Source: Plantactinospora mayteni (GTDB lineage Bacteria; Actinomycetota; Actinomycetes; Mycobacteriales; Micromonosporaceae). Taken from it: a stretch of 64,000 nt of DNA. Below the pieces are notes generated by a model. That model worked only from the letters and a program-made list of their open reading frames with translations. It ran no database searches and was not told the origin of the DNA. A program made the position numbers and the translations under genes. The DNA lies in the NCBI RefSeq assembly GCF_016862935.1, contig NZ_BONX01000045.1, positions 62,001 to 126,000 of the forward strand, in the 5' to 3' direction. Positions 55,337 to 63,484 of the stretch are shown here, piece after piece. Positions within the stretch are counted from its first letter, which is position 1; every line of letters begins with the position of its first letter.

Positions 55337-56356
55337 ATGCTCAAGATTTCACGACGGACGGTGCTGCGGGGAGTCGCGGTCACGGCCGCAGGCGTCGCGC
55401 TGACGTCCGGATCCTCTGTCGCGGCGTCTGCCGCGGTCGCACCCGCTGCCGGTGGCACCACCTGCACGATGCAGACGCTGCCGGTGCCGGCGAACACCTA
55501 CCGCAGCGAGGTCGCGGCGATCGACTCGTCCGGCCGGTTCATTCTCGGCTCGGCGATCGTACGCGAGGAGACCGACACATATCCGGTCCTGCTGTGGGAC
55601 CGCGGCCGGCTGACCAGCTTCGACCCGCCGGCACCGGGCGGGCAGCCGGTCGACGTGAACCGCGACGGCGTCGTCGTCGGCAACGGTTCGGGGTTCCCCA
55701 CGTCGCCGCCGTGGACGTACCGCAACGGGGTGGCGACCCTGCTGCCGGTGATCGACCCGGCTGACTGGACCACGGTCGTGGCGATCAACTCGCGCGGCGA
55801 CATCGCGGGAATGGGCTGGACCTCGAACGGTGAATCGTACGGGCTGCTGTGGCGGGCGGCCCGTACGAGCACGGTCCAGGTGGTCAACACTCCGGTGGGG
55901 TCGACGATCAGCGGCCTCACCGACGACGGCACCATCGTCGGGCGCACCGGCGAGGCCGAGTCGACCGCATGGATGCGGACGCCTTCCGGCGTCGTACGTC
56001 CGCTGGTCGGTCCGGATGGCGACGCGGACGGGTACGTTCTGGCCGCGAACGGGCACTGGGCGGTTGGCCAGGGCCGGCAGGCCGGCGCGCTCGTCGGGCT
56101 GCGGTGGGACCTGCGAACCGGTCAGCCCACCGTGCTCGACTCGCGGCTCGACATCAACCCCACCGATGTCAACGCCCACGGCACCGTACTGGCCGGAGAC
56201 CAGTTGCAGCGCGGCAACACCGTTGTGACGCTCCCGTCGCCCGACCCCAGCCAGCCGGTCGCCGGCCGCTCCCTCGCCGACGACCAGACGGTGGCCGGCT
56301 TCCACAACAACCGGCTTCCCGGCGGGGTGCGGGCGGTGCGCTGGATCGGCTGCTAA
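55337..56356 (+). CDS. TAT-exported HAF-repeat-like beta-propeller protein
   Basis: A 339-residue exported protein. The twin-arginine signal SRRTVLRG is followed by an Ala-rich stretch ending near AASAAVA. The mature protein consists of repeated units of the form AINSRGDIAGMGWTSNGESYGLLW and GLTDDGTIVGRTGEAESTAWM, the pattern of HAF-type extracellular propeller repeats, about six blades. The role may be surface binding or lyase-like; no catalytic residues are evident. GGGGAGG lies five bases before ATG 55337. A 19-bp tandem repeat begins in its last codons. Confidence 0.8.
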   Translation: MLKISRRTVLRGVAVTAAGVALTSGSSVAASAAVAPAAGGTTCTMQTLPVPANTYRSEVAAIDSSGRFILGSAIVREETDTYPVLLWDRGRLTSFDPPAPGGQPVDVNRDGVVVGNGSGFPTSPPWTYRNGVATLLPVIDPADWTTVVAINSRGDIAGMGWTSNGESYGLLWRAARTSTVQVVNTPVGSTISGLTDDGTIVGRTGEAESTAWMRTPSGVVRPLVGPDGDADGYVLAANGHWAVGQGRQAGALVGLRWDLRTGQPTVLDSRLDINPTDVNAHGTVLAGDQLQRGNTVVTLPSPDPSQPVAGRSLADDQTVAGFHNNRLPGGVRAVRWIGC

Positions 56357-56426
56357 GCCGGGGATCGGCTGCTAGGCCGGGGATCGGCTGCTAGGCCGGG
56401 GATCGGCTGCTAGGCCGGGGATCGGC
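56343..56426. repeat. 19-bp tandem repeat spanning the stop codon
   Basis: GATCGGC recurs at 56344, 56363, 56382, 56401 and 56420, a 19-bp period (unit GGGATCGGCTGCTAGGCCG). The first copy encodes the final Ile-Gly-Cys-stop of the HAF-like protein; the following copies carry TAG where the gene has TAA. Confidence 0.93.
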
Positions 56427-56666: not shown

Positions 56667-57257
56667 TCAGCCACCCGACCGGCCGCCCCGGCGGGCGGTA
56701 CCCCGACGGGCCGCCCCGGCTGGCGGGCTGACGGGCAGGAACAGGGCGGCGATGTCGTCGAGCCGGACGACGACGAGCGCGCCCACCACGGCCAGCGGTA
56801 CGGAGAGCACCGCGGTCTGGACCGTCATCCCGGCATCCCCGAGCGAGGCGTACGCGCCGATCCCGGCGACCACGGTCAGCACAAGGTTGCGGGCGAGATG
56901 CCGCCGGCCGAACGGGGCTGCCGCGGCTTCCCCGAAGCACCGGCAGGACGCCTGCGTACCACGGCTGAGCACCACCGCGACCGCCACCGTGAACCCCGCC
57001 AACAGGGACGCCGCCAGCGCGAACCCGACAGTCGTCACCGCGCCGACGGGCAGCGGTACCAACAGCAGGGGCACCGCCGCCTCGGCCGCCACCACCGCCC
57101 CCGCCAGCGGGACGACCACCGATGCCGGCAGCAGGTCCATGGTCCGCAGCGAGTCGACGAACGCCCGGAACGCGGGCCGCCCGCGTAGCTTGCTGACGGC
57201 CGACGCCAGGAAAACCAGCGCGAGCAGGCACCGGCTGAACTCCACCACGTACGACAT
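56667..57257 (-). CDS. MauE/DoxX-like thiol-redox membrane protein
   Basis: A 196-residue membrane protein of the MauE type with four membrane segments. The family pattern includes RCLLALVFLASAVSKLR at the start and RGTQASCRCFGE, with the redox Cys pair Cys105-x-Cys107, after the third segment. MauE proteins help form disulfides in the methylamine dehydrogenase light chain, probably as the membrane partner of MauD. Here it would recycle oxidising power for the Cys-rich peptide encoded nearby. GGGAG precedes ATG 57257. The C-terminal tail is Arg/Gly-rich. Confidence 0.88.
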   Translation of the reverse strand: MSYVVEFSRCLLALVFLASAVSKLRGRPAFRAFVDSLRTMDLLPASVVVPLAGAVVAAEAAVPLLLVPLPVGAVTTVGFALAASLLAGFTVAVAVVLSRGTQASCRCFGEAAAAPFGRRHLARNLVLTVVAGIGAYASLGDAGMTVQTAVLSVPLAVVGALVVVRLDDIAALFLPVSPPAGAARRGTARRGGRSGG

Positions 57258-57325
57258 CTTCTCCCGCCTCCTGACATTGCTCGCCGCTGAAGCCGGCCTG
57301 TCTTCTGCTCCGCTACCGTGGCGCG

Positions 57326-57778
57326 GTGCACGCACCCACTCTGCTGATCATCGCCGGCTCGTTCGTGGCGCTCGGGGTAGCCGTGTTGGCTGCCCGCGCC
57401 CTGCTCCAGGTCGTCGGGGTCAACGGCGACAGCATGACCCCGACATACCAGGACGGCGACCAACTCCTCGTACTCCGGCGGGGATTCCGGCGCCGGCTGC
57501 GGGTCGGCGCCGTCGTCGTCTGCCTGCCGCCCCCCGGCATCAGGATCACCGCGGGCGACGCCGACGCCGCCACGCAGTTGATGGTCAAGCGGGTGGCGGC
57601 GCTGCCGGCCGGACAGGTCTACGTCCTCGGTGACGCGCCCCGGCACAGCCTCGACTCACGGGCATTCGGCGCGCTCCCGCCGGAGCTGGTGCGGGGCGTG
57701 GTCATCCGACGGCTGCGGGCCGCCCTGGGGTCATCGCCCGGCGGGCACGACGTCGCGCCCCGGGAACAGGCTGGGTAG
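57326..57778 (+). CDS. S26-family signal peptidase
   Basis: A 150-residue membrane-anchored serine protease. One N-terminal membrane segment (about 5-28) precedes GVNGDSMTPT with nucleophile Ser36, the general-base region MVKRVAALPAG with Lys88, and GDAPRHSLDSRAFG, the third conserved box. It is shorter than housekeeping signal peptidase I, as is usual for pathway-dedicated versions. Located inside the Cys-rich peptide cluster, it is the obvious candidate to remove the peptide leader. Its 3' end overlaps the convergent MauD-like gene by 48 bp. Confidence 0.9.
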   Translation: MHAPTLLIIAGSFVALGVAVLAARALLQVVGVNGDSMTPTYQDGDQLLVLRRGFRRRLRVGAVVVCLPPPGIRITAGDADAATQLMVKRVAALPAGQVYVLGDAPRHSLDSRAFGALPPELVRGVVIRRLRAALGSSPGGHDVAPREQAG

Positions 57779-58324
57779 CTGGCTGGCGTTGTTGCTGACC
57801 CCGGCCACCCGGTCGTCGGTGTCGACCAGATAGAACGCGGGGAACGCGGCGACCTGGAAGGCCGACTGGAGCGCCCCGTCGAGCGGCTCGTGGACGATGG
57901 CCGCCCGAGTGTCGTGCACGCCCAACGCCGCCACCAGCTCGGCGCGCTCGCGGTCCGCACGGTCCCGGTCCGGCTCCGGGCGCAGCCTGGTGAGCACGAC
58001 GAGGACCGCCATCGGGGTGTCGAGCGCTTCCGCGAGCGCCGCCCGCACCGAGGGCAGTTGCTCCTTGCACCCCGAACAGTCGGGGGCGAGGAACGCCACC
58101 AGACCGCCCGACGCGCGCAGCGAGGCGATGGACACCACGTCCCCGCCGGCGGTCGACGCGGTGAAGTCCGGCACCTGCGCGCCGACCGGGAGGGTCACCA
58201 CCGGGCGGGCGGCGGCCAACTCCTGGGTGTGCTCACGCAGCTTCCTGATGACGCCGAAGGTGAGCAGCAGGTTCAGCAGCGTGAGAATGGTGAGGACGAC
58301 GAGTACGGCGACGACGACGGGCAT
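57731..58324 (-). CDS. MauD/TlpA-like thioredoxin-fold protein
   Basis: A 197-residue membrane-anchored thioredoxin-like protein. One membrane segment (about 3-24) is followed by the fold with QVPDFTASTAGGDVVS and the active site APDCSGC (Cys83 and Cys86), and a late FPAFYLVDTD with the cis-Pro region. This is the MauD pattern, and MauD works with MauE to form disulfides in a Cys-rich partner. It lies 79 bp downstream of the Cys-rich peptide gene on the same strand. CAGGAG precedes ATG 58324. Confidence 0.9.
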   Translation of the reverse strand: MPVVVAVLVVLTILTLLNLLLTFGVIRKLREHTQELAAARPVVTLPVGAQVPDFTASTAGGDVVSIASLRASGGLVAFLAPDCSGCKEQLPSVRAALAEALDTPMAVLVVLTRLRPEPDRDRADRERAELVAALGVHDTRAAIVHEPLDGALQSAFQVAAFPAFYLVDTDDRVAGVSNNASQLPSLFPGRDVVPAGR

Positions 58325-58403
58325 GGGTTCGCTCCTGACGGGAATGGGCACGAGCGCGTCGCGGCTGGGTGGTGCCCGGCCGCGACGCTTCCACGGGCGT
58401 TAC

Positions 58404-58589
58404 TCAGCAGTCCGTACTCCACCAGCACTCGCACGAGCTGTTACAGACGCGGTACTTGAATCGGGTGTTGGTGAACCGGCAGCACATCGGGGTGTTGGTG
58501 CAGGGCGGCTGGCAGACTGCCGAGGCAGTGGTCTTGGGCAGCATCAGTGCCAAGAACCGGTCCGCGAGTGCGCCGACGTGACGGGTCAT
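58404..58589 (-). CDS. Cys-rich peptide, candidate secreted disulfide-rich precursor
   Basis: A 61-residue peptide with two clear parts. The leader (residues 1-24) is amphipathic, without a classic Sec signal, and ends in PKTTASA, an AxA-like site for signal peptidase. The core (25-61) holds eight Cys (26, 30, 36, 37, 49, 53, 55, 61) and an adjacent Trp pair (CECWWSTDC), a layout suited to four disulfides. GGAGG lies eight bases before ATG 58589. Neighbours provide disulfide formation (MauE, MauD), leader cleavage (S26), control (SARP) and export (ABC). Toxin, bacteriocin or signalling peptide are all possible. Confidence 0.8.
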   Translation of the reverse strand: MTRHVGALADRFLALMLPKTTASAVCQPPCTNTPMCCRFTNTRFKYRVCNSSCECWWSTDC

Positions 58590-58636
58590 ATCGCGTACCT
58601 CCAATCTGGATCTAGACTGATCGCGGACGGTAGCCG

Positions 58637-58651
58637 GACGTGCTACACGTC
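58637..58651. promoter_or_regulatory. Perfect palindrome between divergent peptide and SARP genes
   Basis: GACGTG-CTA-CACGTC is an exact 6+3+6 inverted repeat, 48 bp from the peptide start and 35 bp from the SARP start. It is the best operator candidate for joint control. Confidence 0.55.
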
Positions 58652-58685
58652 GACCTACAAGATCGATACAACCGCTTGAGGTGCC

Positions 58686-61685
58686 TTGAGCCTGCGATTC
58701 CAGCTACTCGGCCCGCTCCGGATCACCGCTGCCCGGCCTGTGCCGGTCGGCCCGCAGAAGCAGCGGGCGATGCTGGCCATCCTGTTGCTGTCGGCCAACG
58801 AGCGGGTGTCGCTGGACCGCCTCGTCGGCGAGCTGTGGGACCAGCCGCCACGCTCGGCGGTGGCGAACCTGCGCACCTACGCCAGCGGGCTGCGCCGGTT
58901 GCTGAGCGAGCTGGGCGGCGGACCCGACGGCGGCGACCGGTTGGCCGCCAGCGCCGCCGGATACCAGTTGCGGGTCGACCCGGACGAGCTTGACCTGCAC
59001 CGCTACCAGACCGCGGTCGAGCTGGGCCGCGCGGCTCTCGCCTGCGGTGACCACGCCACCGCCACCGCGCGGTTCCGGGCAGCCCTGGACCTGTGGCAGG
59101 GCCGACCGGCCGAAGACGTACGCCCGGGACCGGAACTGGCCGCCCGGATCACCCTGCTGGAGGAGCAGCACCTGGCGCTGGTCGAGGACATGATCCAGGT
59201 ACGCCTCGCGCGCGGCGAGCACGCCTCGGTGACCGGCGAGCTGCGGCTGTTGATCACCGCTCACCCGTACCGTGAGCGGCTGCGTCACCAGCTCATGCTG
59301 GCGCTGTACCGGTCCGGCGACGCACCGGCGGCCCTCTCGGCGTACGCGGAGACCCGCGCGGTCTTCGCCGACCAGCTCGGCCTCGAACCCGGAACGGAAC
59401 TGTCCCGGCTGCACCAGGCCATCCTGCGCCGGGCTCCCGAACTGTCCACACCCGACACCGCCGGGGAGTCCGTCGATCCGGCACCGGTCGCCAGGCGGCC
59501 CGACGACCGAACCGGCCCGGCCGAACCGCCCCGGCAGTTGCCGCCGAACCCAGCGGCGTTCGTCGGCCGGGTCGACGAGCTGCGTACCATCGAGCGGGCC
59601 TGCACCGCCGCGAACGGGCCACGGAGCGGTCCGTCGGTGGTCGTGTTGCACGGCCCGGGCGGGATGGGCAAGACCACCCTGGCGGTACGCGCCGCGCACC
59701 GGCTCGTGAGCCACTACCCCGACGGACAGCTCTACCTCGACCTACAGGGTGGGGCTCCCGGGATGCCTGGTCTCGACCCACTCTCGGCGCTTGGTCAGTT
59801 GCTGCGCGCACTCGGCGTGCCGGCCAGGGACGTGCCGCTCGAACTGGGCGAGGCGGCGGCGCGGTTCCGGTCGGAGACCGCCGCCCGGCGGCTGCTCATC
59901 GTCCTGGACGGCGCGACCGGGGCGCCGCAGATCAGGTCCCTGCTCCCGGCGGGCCGGGACTGTGCGGTCCTCGTCACCAGCCGCCGGCCGGTAGGCACCC
60001 TCGACGCGCTCCGGCTCCGGCTGGACCGGCTCAGCGACGCCGAAGCGCGCCAGCTCCTCGACACCCTCTGCGGCGACGGCCGGGTCGCGGTCGACACCGA
60101 CGCGACGGACCATCTGGTGACGCTCTGCGACGGGCACCCGCTGGCGCTGCGCATCGCCGGAGCCCGGCTCGCGGCCCGCCCCGACTGGTCCGTCGCGATA
60201 CTCGCCGGCCGGCTGGACAACGAGCGGGAGCGCCTCGACGAACTACGCGCGGACGACCTCGCCATCCGGTCCAGCTTCTGGAACACCTACCGCCAACTGC
60301 TCGACAGCGCCGATCCGGACGACCGTACGGCGGCAGCCGCCTTTCGGTCGCTGTCGCTGCTGCGGGTACCGGAGATGCCGTTGCCGCTCGCCGCGGTCAC
60401 GATCGGTGTCCCGCAACGGCGCGCCCTGACGCTGCTGGACCGGCTCACCGAGACGCACCTGCTGGACGCGATCGGGCCGGCCCGGTTCCGCTTCCACGAT
60501 CTGCTCCGGCTCTACGGCGCGGAGCTGGCCGAAGAGGCGGATCCGGCTGCCGAGAGCCAGCACGCGGTACGTCGCGGGCTCACCGCGTATCTGACCACGG
60601 TGCTGCGCGCCGGCCAACTGTTGCGCCCGCAGCGGGTGGTCGAACTCGCCACCGGGCCCACCGTCGTCGAGCTGGGCACACTCGACGACGCCGTACGCTG
60701 GGTCGACGGCGACCTGGCCGGGATCATCGCGGCGGCACGGCAGGCGTGCGACGCGGCACCGCAGCTCAGCCGGCTCTGCGTGGAGGCGATTCCGTCGGTG
60801 GCCGTGTGGTTGCAGAAGCGCAACCGTTGGGCGGAGGCCGATGCCCTGATCGCCGTCTGCGAGCAGGCGGCGACGCTCACCGAGGACGATGCCGCCCAGG
60901 CCACGGTGCTGCCGTTGCGGGCGACGTTGCACTGGCGTACCGGATCGCCGGAGGCGGCATGCGGCGCGTTGAAGGCGGCGCTGGGGCTGTGGCGCCGGCT
61001 GGGTGATCGCGAGGGTGAGGGGCGGGCACTTCAGAACCTCGGCTGGTTCCACCACCGTACGGGGTCCCCTCGTCGGGCGGCGGGACTCGTCCGCGCGGCG
61101 GTCGAACTCCTCGCCGACGCGAAGCCGGTGTGGCTGGCGATGGCACTGCACAATCTGGCCGAGATCGAGTTCGAGTTGGGCAACTTCACGGCCGCGGGCG
61201 AACACCTCACCCGCTGCCTGGCGATGCGGCGCGACCACGACGACGCCGTCGGCGAGGCGATCACACTGGTCGCGCTCGGCCGGACGCAGAGCCAACTCGG
61301 GCGGCACCTGGACGCGCTGACGGCACTCACCGCCGGGCTGCGGCTGTGCCGGCGGACCGGCAACCAGGAGGACGAGTGGGAGGCGCTGCTCAGCCGCTCG
61401 GAGGTGCACCTCCGGATCGGCGACGTGGCGCTGGCCCAGCAGGACGGCGCGGAGGCGCTGACCCTGGCCCGGGCGGCCGGCCACCGGTACGGCGAGGCGG
61501 CGGCGCTCCGCCAGCTCGGCCGGGTACGCGAGCGTCGGGGCGAGCGCGCGGCGGCCGACGGGTACGCGCGGCGAGCCGACCAGATCTTCGCCGACCTGCC
61601 CGGCCAGCGGGACGGCGTACTCGAGACGTTCCTCGCCGGCGCGGATCAACCGATCGGTGTCGCTCCCGCCTCGGCCGGGGCATAA
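58686..61685 (+). CDS. SARP-family regulator (winged helix, BTAD, NB-ARC, TPR)
   Basis: A 999-residue AfsR-like activator. The winged-helix DNA-binding domain (1-90, FQLLGPLRI...RVSLDRLVGELWDQPPRSAVANLRTYASGLRR in pieces) is followed by BTAD (about 97-245), an NB-ARC ATPase with Walker A GPGGMGKT (about 322-330), and C-terminal TPRs. The start is TTG at 58686, supported by GAGG four bases upstream and the SARP N-terminus beginning at once. It is divergent from the Cys-rich peptide gene, so it is the likely pathway activator. The 3' end overlaps the convergent ABC gene by 40 bp. Confidence 0.93.
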   Translation: MSLRFQLLGPLRITAARPVPVGPQKQRAMLAILLLSANERVSLDRLVGELWDQPPRSAVANLRTYASGLRRLLSELGGGPDGGDRLAASAAGYQLRVDPDELDLHRYQTAVELGRAALACGDHATATARFRAALDLWQGRPAEDVRPGPELAARITLLEEQHLALVEDMIQVRLARGEHASVTGELRLLITAHPYRERLRHQLMLALYRSGDAPAALSAYAETRAVFADQLGLEPGTELSRLHQAILRRAPELSTPDTAGESVDPAPVARRPDDRTGPAEPPRQLPPNPAAFVGRVDELRTIERACTAANGPRSGPSVVVLHGPGGMGKTTLAVRAAHRLVSHYPDGQLYLDLQGGAPGMPGLDPLSALGQLLRALGVPARDVPLELGEAAARFRSETAARRLLIVLDGATGAPQIRSLLPAGRDCAVLVTSRRPVGTLDALRLRLDRLSDAEARQLLDTLCGDGRVAVDTDATDHLVTLCDGHPLALRIAGARLAARPDWSVAILAGRLDNERERLDELRADDLAIRSSFWNTYRQLLDSADPDDRTAAAAFRSLSLLRVPEMPLPLAAVTIGVPQRRALTLLDRLTETHLLDAIGPARFRFHDLLRLYGAELAEEADPAAESQHAVRRGLTAYLTTVLRAGQLLRPQRVVELATGPTVVELGTLDDAVRWVDGDLAGIIAAARQACDAAPQLSRLCVEAIPSVAVWLQKRNRWAEADALIAVCEQAATLTEDDAAQATVLPLRATLHWRTGSPEAACGALKAALGLWRRLGDREGEGRALQNLGWFHHRTGSPRRAAGLVRAAVELLADAKPVWLAMALHNLAEIEFELGNFTAAGEHLTRCLAMRRDHDDAVGEAITLVALGRTQSQLGRHLDALTALTAGLRLCRRTGNQEDEWEALLSRSEVHLRIGDVALAQQDGAEALTLARAAGHRYGEAAALRQLGRVRERRGERAAADGYARRADQIFADLPGQRDGVLETFLAGADQPIGVAPASAGA

Positions 61686-63484
61686 CCCTCGGCCTGCATC
61701 CGGAACAGCGAGGCGTACACGCCGTCGGCCGCCAGCAGTTCGTCGTGTCGGCCCGCCTCGATAACCCGCCCGCCGGAGAGCGCCACGATCAGGTCGGCGT
61801 CCCGCAGCGTACCCAGCCGGTGCGAGATCAGCACACTGGTCCGGCTGGCCCGGTAGTGGCGCAGCCGGAGCTGGATGTCCCGCTCGGCCTCGGCGTCCAG
61901 GCCGGCACTCGGCTCGTCCAGGATGAGCAGGTCCCGGGCCGCAGGCAGCACAGAACGGGCGATCGCCACCCGCTGCCACTGCCCGCCGGAGAGCAGTACG
62001 CCCGCGTCCGCCGGATCGCCGTCCAGCTCGAACACCCGGGACAGCATCGTCTGGTACCCCCGAGGCAGCGTCTCGATGGTCTCGTGGATGCCGGCCCGGC
62101 GGGCGGCGTCGGCGATCCGGGCGGCGTCCTCGGCGCGAACGTGGTCCGGGCCGGCCGGGTCGACGTCGCCGAGCCAGATGTTCTCCTCGGCCGTCAGGTC
62201 GTAGGTCATGTAGTCCTGGAACACCGCGCCGATCCGGGCCCGCAGCTCGGGCACGGACAGCTCGCGGAGGTCGACGCCGTCCCACAGGATCGCGCCCCGG
62301 GTCGGGTCGTAGAACCGGCAGAGCAGCTTGACCAGGGTGCTCTTGCCGGCGCCGTTGTGGCCGACCAGGGCCACCGCCTGTCCGGACGGAATGAACAGGT
62401 CCACGCCGCGCAGCACCCACGGGTGCTCCGGACCGTAGCGGAACCAGACGTCGCGGAACTCGATCCCCCGCTTCAGCTTGGGCACCGGTCGTGGGCGGGT
62501 CGGCTCCGGCAGGTCCGGTGGGGAGGTGACGATCTGCTCGTAGTGCCCGAGCAGCAGCATCGCCTGGTGGATGCCGGCAAGGTGGTCGATCAGGGTGGCC
62601 AGGCTGCTCTGCACCGCGGCGACGGCGGCGATGAAGATGGCCACGTCGCCCACCGTGAGCCCGCCGGATCGGGCGGTGGCGATGGCCCATACCAGGCCGC
62701 CGCCGGAGAGCGCCGCGCTGAGTATCGCGAGTAGCGCCTGGACGCGTACCTCCCGGCGCTCGTGGGCCCGGCGTGCGGCACTCGCCGTACCCAACTCGGC
62801 GAGCATCCGGCGGCGGAACAGCCCGCCCAGCCGCAGCAGACGGATCTCCTTGGCCGCGGACAAGCTGGTCAGCAGGCTGGCGTAGAACATCTCGCGCCGC
62901 TCCCCCGGCCCGATCTCCCACAGCAGGTTCGCCCGTCGCCGGCTCAGCCGCACCTCGGCCACCAGCGCCGGGATGCCACCGGCGGCGACCAGCACGGCCA
63001 TCACCGGGCTGATCACCACGAGGGCGCCGAGGAAGCCGGTCAGCAGCACCGCGCCCTGCACCAGGCCGACCAGACCGTCGACGCAGCGGCCGGGCCCGTC
63101 CCGCCCGGCCTGCTCGGCAAGCCGGAGCGTGTTCTGGAACGCCGGCTCCTCCAGCCGGCGCAGGCCGGGGAGGCGGTCGGTCGCCGCGTAAAGCTGGTCG
63201 AGCGCGACGACTGCGGACGAGCGGCCGAGGTCCGCCCGCAGATAGTTCGTCAGGTGCGGCACCAGGGCGAGGCCGACGGAGACCGCCGCCAGCCCGGTCG
63301 CCACCCCGAGGATCGCGCCGCCGGAGGCGTCCGCGACCCGGTCGAGGACGAGCTTGGTGAGCCAGGCCGCCAGCACCGGAAGCGCGCCCGCGATCGGCGC
63401 GAGCAGCACGTACGCCGCCAGGTTGGCACGCCCGGCCCGCCAGACCACCGCGACGGCCCGTGCGGTCCGGGCAATGCTGATCAT
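61646..63484 (-). CDS. ABC exporter, fused membrane and ATPase domains
   Basis: A 612-residue half-transporter of the lipid/peptide exporter type. The membrane domain (about 1-310) has five or six segments. The ATPase has Walker A GHNGAGKST, Q-loop FQDYMTYDLTAEENI, signature LSGGQWQRVAIARS and Walker B LLILDEPSAGLD with an H-loop SHR. There is no N-terminal C39 peptidase, so it would export an already cleaved or leader-bearing peptide. Its position at the end of the cluster makes the Cys-rich peptide a reasonable substrate. ATG at 63484. Confidence 0.93.
   Translation of the reverse strand: MISIARTARAVAVVWRAGRANLAAYVLLAPIAGALPVLAAWLTKLVLDRVADASGGAILGVATGLAAVSVGLALVPHLTNYLRADLGRSSAVVALDQLYAATDRLPGLRRLEEPAFQNTLRLAEQAGRDGPGRCVDGLVGLVQGAVLLTGFLGALVVISPVMAVLVAAGGIPALVAEVRLSRRRANLLWEIGPGERREMFYASLLTSLSAAKEIRLLRLGGLFRRRMLAELGTASAARRAHERREVRVQALLAILSAALSGGGLVWAIATARSGGLTVGDVAIFIAAVAAVQSSLATLIDHLAGIHQAMLLLGHYEQIVTSPPDLPEPTRPRPVPKLKRGIEFRDVWFRYGPEHPWVLRGVDLFIPSGQAVALVGHNGAGKSTLVKLLCRFYDPTRGAILWDGVDLRELSVPELRARIGAVFQDYMTYDLTAEENIWLGDVDPAGPDHVRAEDAARIADAARRAGIHETIETLPRGYQTMLSRVFELDGDPADAGVLLSGGQWQRVAIARSVLPAARDLLILDEPSAGLDAEAERDIQLRLRHYRASRTSVLISHRLGTLRDADLIVALSGGRVIEAGRHDELLAADGVYASLFRMQAEGYAPAEAGATPIG

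What the first reader, a model, noticed from the sequence alone, without database searches (positions are those of the whole stretch)
56667..63484. Compact cluster for a secreted disulfide-rich peptide
A 61-residue peptide with eight Cys in a 37-residue core and a leader ending in an AxA-like site is surrounded by MauE-like and MauD-like thiol oxidation proteins, a dedicated S26 peptidase, a SARP activator and an ABC exporter without peptidase domain. Every step for making, folding, cleaving and exporting a disulfide-bonded peptide is present, but no known modification enzyme (lanthipeptide, sactipeptide) is. This looks like an undescribed class of actinobacterial peptide system.
Basis: partly seen in the sequence, partly recalled or inferred. 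Interest (0 to 1): 0.87.

Follow-up and report, generated by a model that had tools for sequence, protein, structure and literature searches.

The report
Widespread disulfide-rich secreted peptide gene clusters
This stretch of an actinobacterial genome encodes a small cysteine-rich peptide with its own predicted folding, cutting and export proteins; relatives of the cluster occur in many actinobacteria, and a few genomes carry dozens of different such peptides that appear to share one set of these proteins.

Summary
In detail: a 61-aa precursor (24-aa leader, 37-aa core, 8 Cys) beside MauD-like, MauE-like, S26, SARP and ABC genes. Loci chosen by the MauD-like protein carry a Cys-rich peptide with the same kind of leader (DRLL-x4-VP-x3-AxA) in 46 of 52 and 75 of 80 cases, with ABC in 50 and 76, S26 in 48 and 72, MauE in 51 and 52. 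Beyond these families and SARP no clustered neighbour family is in more than 8 of 132 loci, and none of the 20 found in 5-8 loci is a RiPP cyclase or radical SAM enzyme by Pfam. Cys number is even in 145 of 155 distinct cores. Four genomes hold many scattered precursors but few machinery genes: 48 matches with one ABC exporter of this clade, 12 with one complete locus. Prior art: decRiPPter (PMC7794033, passages seen) listed three Streptomyces candidate families with mauE (one with mauD) and precursors of at least 8 Cys. Verdict: a real, widespread, uncharacterised class, partly anticipated in print. Disulfides, cleavage, export and activity are inferred, not shown.

The parts
58404..58589 (-). 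precursor peptide gene, 61 aa with stop codon
   Evidence: homologues at 87% and 80% identity; dN/dS below 1
58518..58589 (-). leader, 24 aa, MTRHVGALADRFLALMLPKTTASA; class motif DRLL-x4-VP-x3-AxA
   Evidence: P18 and A22 invariant, D10, R11 and A24 in at least 90% of 17 rows
58407..58517 (-). core, 37 aa, 8 Cys (residues 26, 30, 36, 37, 49, 53, 55, 61)
   Evidence: homologue in L199 lacks Cys49 and Cys55 together
57731..58351 (-). MauD-like protein: one N-terminal TM segment and thioredoxin-type domain with CSGC
   Evidence: (C86, C89 invariant, P154 nearly invariant in 17 rows)
56667..57257 (-). MauE-like membrane protein with CRCFG motif
   Evidence: PF07291; C105, C107 invariant in 7 rows
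57326..57778 (+). S26 peptidase with one N-terminal TM segment
   Evidence: (S36, K88, D110, S111 invariant in 12 rows)
58686..61685 (+). SARP/AfsR-type regulator (BTAD, NB-ARC, TPR), divergent from the precursor
61646..63484 (-). ABC exporter half-transporter, no C39 peptidase match
   Evidence: clade alignment

Best explanation
A leader-directed, disulfide-rich secreted peptide pathway. The SARP switches on the cluster. The precursor carries a short leader (DRLL-x4-VP) that addresses it to its own machinery rather than to Sec. The ABC half-transporter exports it, the membrane-anchored S26 peptidase cuts after AxA, the MauD-like thioredoxin-fold protein forms and sorts disulfides, and the MauE-like membrane protein re-oxidises MauD. 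The product is a compact peptide of about 37 residues with four disulfides, most likely an antagonistic (bacteriocin-like) or signalling peptide. Shown: gene association, leader, conserved catalytic residues, even Cys number, lack of another common neighbour enzyme, dN/dS below 1. Inferred: every biochemical step, their order, the membrane side of oxidation and cleavage, and the biological role. In some genomes the same machinery appears to serve many unlinked precursors.
For: Loci chosen by the MauD-like protein: precursor in 46 of 52 (whole genomes) and 75 of 80 (named contigs), ABC 50 and 76, S26 48 and 72, MauE 51 and 52, SARP 31 and 54, within 6 kb (a 200-base probe finds two loci in both sets; the leader model was partly trained on the 52, not on the 80). 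Nearest machinery gene within 500 bp in 117 of 122 loci with a precursor. Next most common neighbour family in 8 of 132 loci. Even Cys in 145 of 155 distinct cores, 82 of 91 core groups, p 3.5e-16 against one half; four of the ten odd ones are errors of my leader cut. In a homologue two Cys are lost together. Conserved motifs: CxxC in 151 of 154 MauD-like, CxCFG in 106 of 110 MauE, GxSMxP in 133 of 136 S26 frames. Leaders are much less hydrophobic than the TM segments of the same clusters: median best 12-residue hydropathy 1.03 against 2.79 (MauD-like) and 2.25 (S26).
Against: No biochemical or expression data. An even Cys number also fits metal-binding Cys pairs; one of 17 precursors weakly matches zinc-ribbon models (E about 0.001). 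MauE is missing within 6 kb in 28 of 80 named loci, and all four machinery genes plus precursor are together in only 46 of 80 (43 of 52 in the other set). Positive charges after the TM segment would by the positive-inside rule place the MauD-like domain, and perhaps S26, in the cytoplasm, against folding outside; the counts depend on the start codon chosen. TlpA/ResA relatives of MauD often reduce rather than oxidise (recalled). Three of eight loci chosen as negative controls turned out to carry a divergent version of the system.
Confidence: 0.74

Rival explanations
1. Cytoplasmic-face processing: the MauD-like domain and the S26 domain face the cytoplasm, cut and oxidise (or keep reduced) the peptide at the inner membrane surface, and the ABC transporter exports the finished product.
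For: With the nearest start codon K and R are more numerous after than before the TM segment in 96 of 96 MauD-like and 106 of 112 S26 proteins; in a second count 127 of 127 and 110 of 116, and with the earliest possible start still 92 of 127 and 61 of 116. The window S26 also matches the nickel superoxide dismutase maturation protease model (51.7 bits, below its cut-off of 63.25), whose substrate is cytoplasmic (recalled).
Against: Start codons are uncertain, and the nearest-start count is not diagnostic: 4 of 7 rows of ordinary signal peptidases also had more after than before (7 usable rows from 30 loci, only about 4 distinct proteins). What does differ is the number after the segment: mean 2.7 and 3.2 here, 0.57 there. 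The actinobacterial cytoplasm is reducing (recalled).
Confidence: 0.18
2. Metal-binding or metal-scavenging peptide: the Cys bind a metal and MauD/MauE keep them reduced.
For: Even Cys number; one of 17 precursors weakly resembles zinc-ribbon models.
Against: Cores are hypervariable in spacing and rich in Gly and Tyr; own exporter and peptidase; no metal-uptake family among the 20 minor neighbour families in 5-8 loci.
Confidence: 0.07
3. Thioether RiPP (lanthipeptide, sactipeptide or ranthipeptide) whose enzyme is encoded elsewhere in the genome.
For: Some RiPP enzymes are unclustered (start of the abstract of PMC8960859 seen in the listing).
Against: No such enzyme among the window neighbours or the 20 minor families in 5-8 of 132 loci; an even Cys number is not expected of Cys-Ser/Thr thioethers. 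Whole genomes were not searched for such enzymes.
Confidence: 0.05
4. An ordinary Sec-secreted Cys-rich protein that happens to sit near a signal peptidase.
For: The AxA end of the leader resembles a signal peptidase site.
Against: Leader short and little hydrophobic; an ABC gene of this clade within 6 kb in 126 of 132 loci.
Confidence: 0.04

Closest known systems
decRiPPter candidate RiPP families with mauE/mauD (PMC7794033; passages seen)
   Same: MauE in three families, MauD in one, each with a predicted precursor of at least 8 Cys; suggested role in modifying the precursor.
   Different: Computational candidates in Streptomyces. Their precursor sequences are in a supplement that I could not open, so identity of leader and of S26 or ABC partners is not tested.
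Prochlorosins (29 precursors and the promiscuous enzyme ProcM; passages of the review PMC12328550)
   Same: Many precursors with variable cores served by one processing enzyme.
   Different: Class II lanthipeptides of cyanobacteria; here no such enzyme was seen beside the precursors, and one genome has 48 precursor matches.
Actifensins, defensin-like bacteriocins of Actinomyces (PMC6989792; passages)
   Same: 37-residue disulfide peptide of an actinobacterium with ABC transporter genes nearby; several copies in some genomes.
   Different: Three disulfides with a defensin pattern, G-x-E before the mature peptide, subtilisin-like protease and LuxR-type regulator; no MauE, MauD or S26 in the passages seen.
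TMcins (PMC13252029; parts 1 and 2 of 5 read)
   Same: Cluster with its own thiol oxidant (DsbA-like TmcD), ABC exporter and membrane protease.
   Different: Transmembrane product, one disulfide, S2P-type protease, Staphylococcus model.
Methylamine dehydrogenase maturation genes mauE and mauD
   Same: Same protein families; proposed disulfide role (the paper citing its reference 66).
   Different: No other mau gene among the window neighbours or the 20 minor families; the MauD-like protein scores far below the MauD cut-off.

Membership tests
RiPP (ribosomal peptide with leader, core, modification and cleavage) | Precursor gene with conserved leader and variable core | tested here: met
   among 50 G013 precursors mean leader identity 0.42 against 0.24 in non-Cys core columns
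RiPP (ribosomal peptide with leader, core, modification and cleavage) | Dedicated modification proteins and protease encoded with it | tested here: met
   by gene association only
RiPP (ribosomal peptide with leader, core, modification and cleavage) | Modified product observed | not testable with these tools
   no mass data
decRiPPter mauE candidate families | mauE (and mauD) beside a precursor with at least 8 Cys | tested here: met
   window; published text:
decRiPPter mauE candidate families | Same precursor leader | not testable with these tools
   their table is in a supplement; no supplement look-ups were allowed
Lanthipeptide or sactipeptide | Lan or radical SAM enzyme in the cluster | tested here: not met
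   window neighbours; 20 minor families of 132 loci
Actifensin / defensin-like bacteriocin | Six-Cys defensin pattern and afn gene set | tested here: not met
   8 Cys and no Pfam match to the window precursor; gene set differs from the passages
Prochlorosin-like trans library | Many unlinked precursors with a shared leader and few processing loci | tested here: met
   G013, G010, G510, G032 by counts:
Prochlorosin-like trans library | Processing of unlinked precursors by the one machinery | not testable with these tools
   inferred from the counts
Methylamine dehydrogenase maturation | mau structural genes nearby | tested here: not met

The most novel reading that the evidence does not exclude
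Some genomes of the window's family run a venom-like peptide library: about 50 scattered precursor genes with one leader and hypervariable cores of even Cys number, all matured in trans by a single dispersed set of exporter, oxidant and peptidase, and partly under a shared operator.
Probability: 0.55. Interest if true: 0.92.

Novelty: new variant of a known kind. Interest (0 to 1): 0.8.

Why it matters
It would give actinobacteria, a main source of antibiotics, a common but uncharacterised class of disulfide-rich peptides made by a minimal machinery of four proteins. The leader is shared and the cores are naturally diversified, so the machinery could become a way to make folded disulfide peptides. 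The genomes with dozens of precursors make it possible to test how one oxidative folding and export system copes with many unrelated Cys patterns.

Tried and rejected
Single-sequence structure prediction of the core: mean pLDDT 65.3, pTM 0.29; too weak for a fold search, none was run. PDB sequence search with the precursor profile: best E 0.24, not meaningful. Leader/core split of dN/dS: inconsistent between pairs (core 1.19 in one pair, 0.19 and 0.26 in the others), nothing drawn from it. Control set: eight background TlpA-type loci were fetched; none passed the leader model, but L118-L120 proved on inspection to hold an 8-Cys peptide beside a fused MauE-MauD frame and an ABC gene, and L123 and L124 also hold MauE- and ABC-like genes, so only L121, L122 and L125 are plain negatives besides the shuffles. 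Operator idea: a dyad GTCCA-N3-TGGAC with at most one mismatch lies upstream of 14 of 50 G013 precursors against 4.66% of 5000 background windows, p 4e-8; merging tandem neighbours leaves 9 groups, p 2e-4 with 45 taken as the number of groups and 8e-5 with 40 (the precursors lie in 36 fetched loci). The pattern was found in the same sequences, so these values overstate; suggestive only. The match near the window precursor overlaps its ribosome site and is not kept in L017. Window promoter and terminator scans, RNA families and the viral collections were not used. Papers: searches and 95 of the held open library showed no experimental study of this class in their listings; subscription papers are not held. 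PMC13192320 was opened and its 'MauE' hit was part of an author name.

Full report
What is there. On the minus strand, 58589 to 58404, a 61-codon gene encodes MTRHVGALADRFLALMLPKTTASA followed by a 37-residue core with eight Cys. Downstream on the same strand are a MauD-like thioredoxin-fold protein and a MauE-family protein; an S26 peptidase gene lies between them on the plus strand; a SARP gene is divergent from the precursor, and an ABC exporter gene on the minus strand meets the end of the SARP gene. The ABC protein has no C39 peptidase match. The window precursor matches no Pfam or NCBIfam family at E 0.01; of 17 aligned precursors one weakly matches zinc-ribbon models.

The peptide is real. 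A search of 101 genomes found close homologues in two genomes of the same genus (87% and 80% identity) and weaker ones further away; 86 of 101 genomes have some match at E up to 1, most of them probably noise. Twenty regions around peptide hits were taken; 15 of the 20 also hold a MauD-like gene, L025-L028 and L030 do not. An alignment of 17 precursors keeps P18 and A22 in all rows and D10, R11 and A24 in at least 90%, while cores differ. Nucleotide changes between the window precursor and its two homologues give dN/dS 0.43 and 0.23.

To select without looking at the peptide I used the MauD-like protein (an alignment whose rows come from peptide-selected loci). In 394 genomes of the class, 56 near-full-length matches reach E 1.1e-26 or better, with a gap down to 4e-20 where only the thioredoxin part matches. 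Fifty-two loci were fetched for these; two pairs of matches share a locus and two matches of the window's own genome were already held. A leader model built only from the 17 precursors scores above 10 bits, with at least four Cys behind it, in 37 of 52 loci against 0 of 260 dinucleotide shuffles; a second model, trained partly on these loci, in 45 of 52 against 0 of 260; at lower thresholds up to 3 of 260 shuffles pass. A separate scan of contigs of 84,980 species gave 117 relatives, of which 80 were kept; 75 of these 80 have the precursor. Counts within 6 kb of the MauD-like gene, for the 52 and the 80: precursor 46 and 75, ABC 50 and 76, S26 48 and 72, MauE 51 and 52, SARP 31 and 54, all four machinery genes plus precursor 43 and 46. 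A 200-base probe test finds two loci in both sets. The named hosts include Micromonospora, Nonomuraea, Planobispora, Actinomadura, Streptomyces, Kibdelosporangium, Lentzea, Amycolatopsis, Virgisporangium and Fodinicola. A plasmid of Streptomyces atratus carries, in order, a BTAD regulator (divergent), the precursor (annotated hypothetical protein, 6 Cys), MauE, the MauD-like protein (hypothetical), ABC and S26.

Negative controls, told in full. Of eight background loci none passed the leader model. On inspection, L118-L120 carry an 8-Cys peptide with a different, shorter leader beside a fused MauE-MauD frame and an ABC gene, probably a divergent branch; L123 and L124 also have MauE- and ABC-like genes. 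Plain negatives are three loci and the shuffles.

No other common enzyme. Clustering called neighbours of at least 90 codons within 7 kb in the 132 loci gave ABC (126 loci), SARP (90), MauE (76), MauD-like (61) and S26 (46) as the only frequent families; this simple gene caller undercounts the last two compared. The next families are in 8 loci or fewer. Pfam on one member of each of the 20 further families found in 5-8 loci gives histidine kinases, regulators, sigma factor, transporters, tRNA synthetase subunits, dehydrogenases, a serine beta-lactamase-type protein and a cytochrome P450 (5 loci), no LanB, LanC, LanM or radical SAM family. Families in fewer loci were not named. So the only chemistry common to the class in view is thiol oxidation and proteolysis.

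Cysteine parity. Of 155 distinct cores near a MauD-like gene, 145 have an even number of Cys, mostly 6, 8 or 10. Grouped at 50% identity, 82 of 91 groups are even (p 3.5e-16 against one half). Four of the ten odd cores (L083, L020, L134, L154) are odd only because my pattern cut one Cys off with the leader. In L199, a homologue of the window peptide, Cys49 and Cys55 are both glycine while the other six remain, which predicts that these two are partners.

Mechanism. The MauD-like CxxC, MauE CxCFG and S26 Ser and Lys are conserved. The leaders lack a signal-peptide-like hydrophobic stretch. The simplest pathway is export by the ABC protein, cutting by S26 after AxA, and oxidation by MauD with MauE as its re-oxidant. 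The side of the membrane is open. Positive charges follow the TM segment in MauD-like and S26 proteins (means 3.2 and 2.7 in 12 residues), which by the positive-inside rule would put their domains inside. With the earliest possible start the excess remains in 92 of 127 MauD-like and 61 of 116 S26 proteins. The comparison with ordinary signal peptidases is thin: 7 rows, about 4 distinct proteins, with 0 or 1 positive residue after the segment; with the nearest start 4 of the 7 also had more after than before.

Two genomic lifestyles. In several genomes precursors and machinery are of similar number: G503 23 precursor matches and 17 MauD-like genes (a 14-Mb assembly with 10% contamination), G002 9 and 7, G045 9 and 5, two of the five weak. 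The window genome has four full-length MauD-like loci and three precursor matches at E 1e-3 or better. Four genomes differ. G013 has 48 precursor matches at E 0.01 or better, with 150 of 434 candidates scored, one strong and one weaker MauD-like gene, one strong and one partial MauE match and a single ABC at E 1e-100 or better (2e-247), all far apart. G010, a single contig, has 12 precursor matches and one locus with S26, ABC, MauD and MauE and no precursor beside it; ten of the 12 were fetched and read. G510 has 22 precursor matches and two MauD-like genes, G032 27 and three. In G013, 51 peptide rows were read; 50 have an even Cys number and the odd one (L236) looks like a false match; two of the 48 matches (L221, L234) gave no row by my criteria. 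In the 20 loci read from G010, G510 and G032, 21 of 23 rows are even. A G013 precursor and its G032 counterpart keep all eight Cys, with dN/dS 0.12 in the leader and 0.25 in the core. In a sample of 300 genomes of the window's family 108 have a precursor at E 1e-3 or better, where shown with 20 candidates scored per genome. That one machinery serves all precursors is inferred from the counts.

Prior art and novelty. The decRiPPter paper listed three candidate families with mauE, one with mauD, with precursors of at least eight Cys, and proposed a role of these genes in modifying the peptides (PMC7794033, passages). No experiment on them showed in the searches named in Tried and rejected. I therefore rate the class as a new variant of a known kind, anticipated but uncharacterised, and the library genomes as the most surprising part.

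Noticed in passing
G013 (L025-L028, L206-L241): 48 precursor matches with the shared leader are scattered over one 7.2 Mb genome that has one ABC exporter of this clade and one strong MauD-like gene.
   Followed up: yes
window 57326-57778 and 57731-58351, and relatives in L066-L117, L126-L205: Positive charges follow rather than precede the TM segment of the MauD-like and S26 proteins, which may mean that their domains face the cytoplasm.
   Followed up: partly
L118 10833-11105, L119 10746-10985, L120 9012-9266: A divergent branch: 8-Cys peptides with a short leader beside a fused MauE-MauD reading frame and an ABC gene.
   Followed up: partly
upstream of precursors in L025-L027, L212-L241: A dyad near GTCCA-N3-TGGAC is enriched upstream of part of the G013 precursors.
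   Followed up: partly
L033, L087, L105 (window genome): Three further MauD-like loci in the window's own genome; L105 has no recognised precursor or S26 nearby.
   Followed up: partly
window 56355-56425: A unit of about 19 bases (ggggatcggctgctaggcc) repeats about four times just after the gene ending at 56356 (seen by eye).
   Followed up: no
L266 (Streptomyces atratus plasmid): The whole gene set lies on a 111-kb plasmid next to an integrase gene.
   Followed up: no
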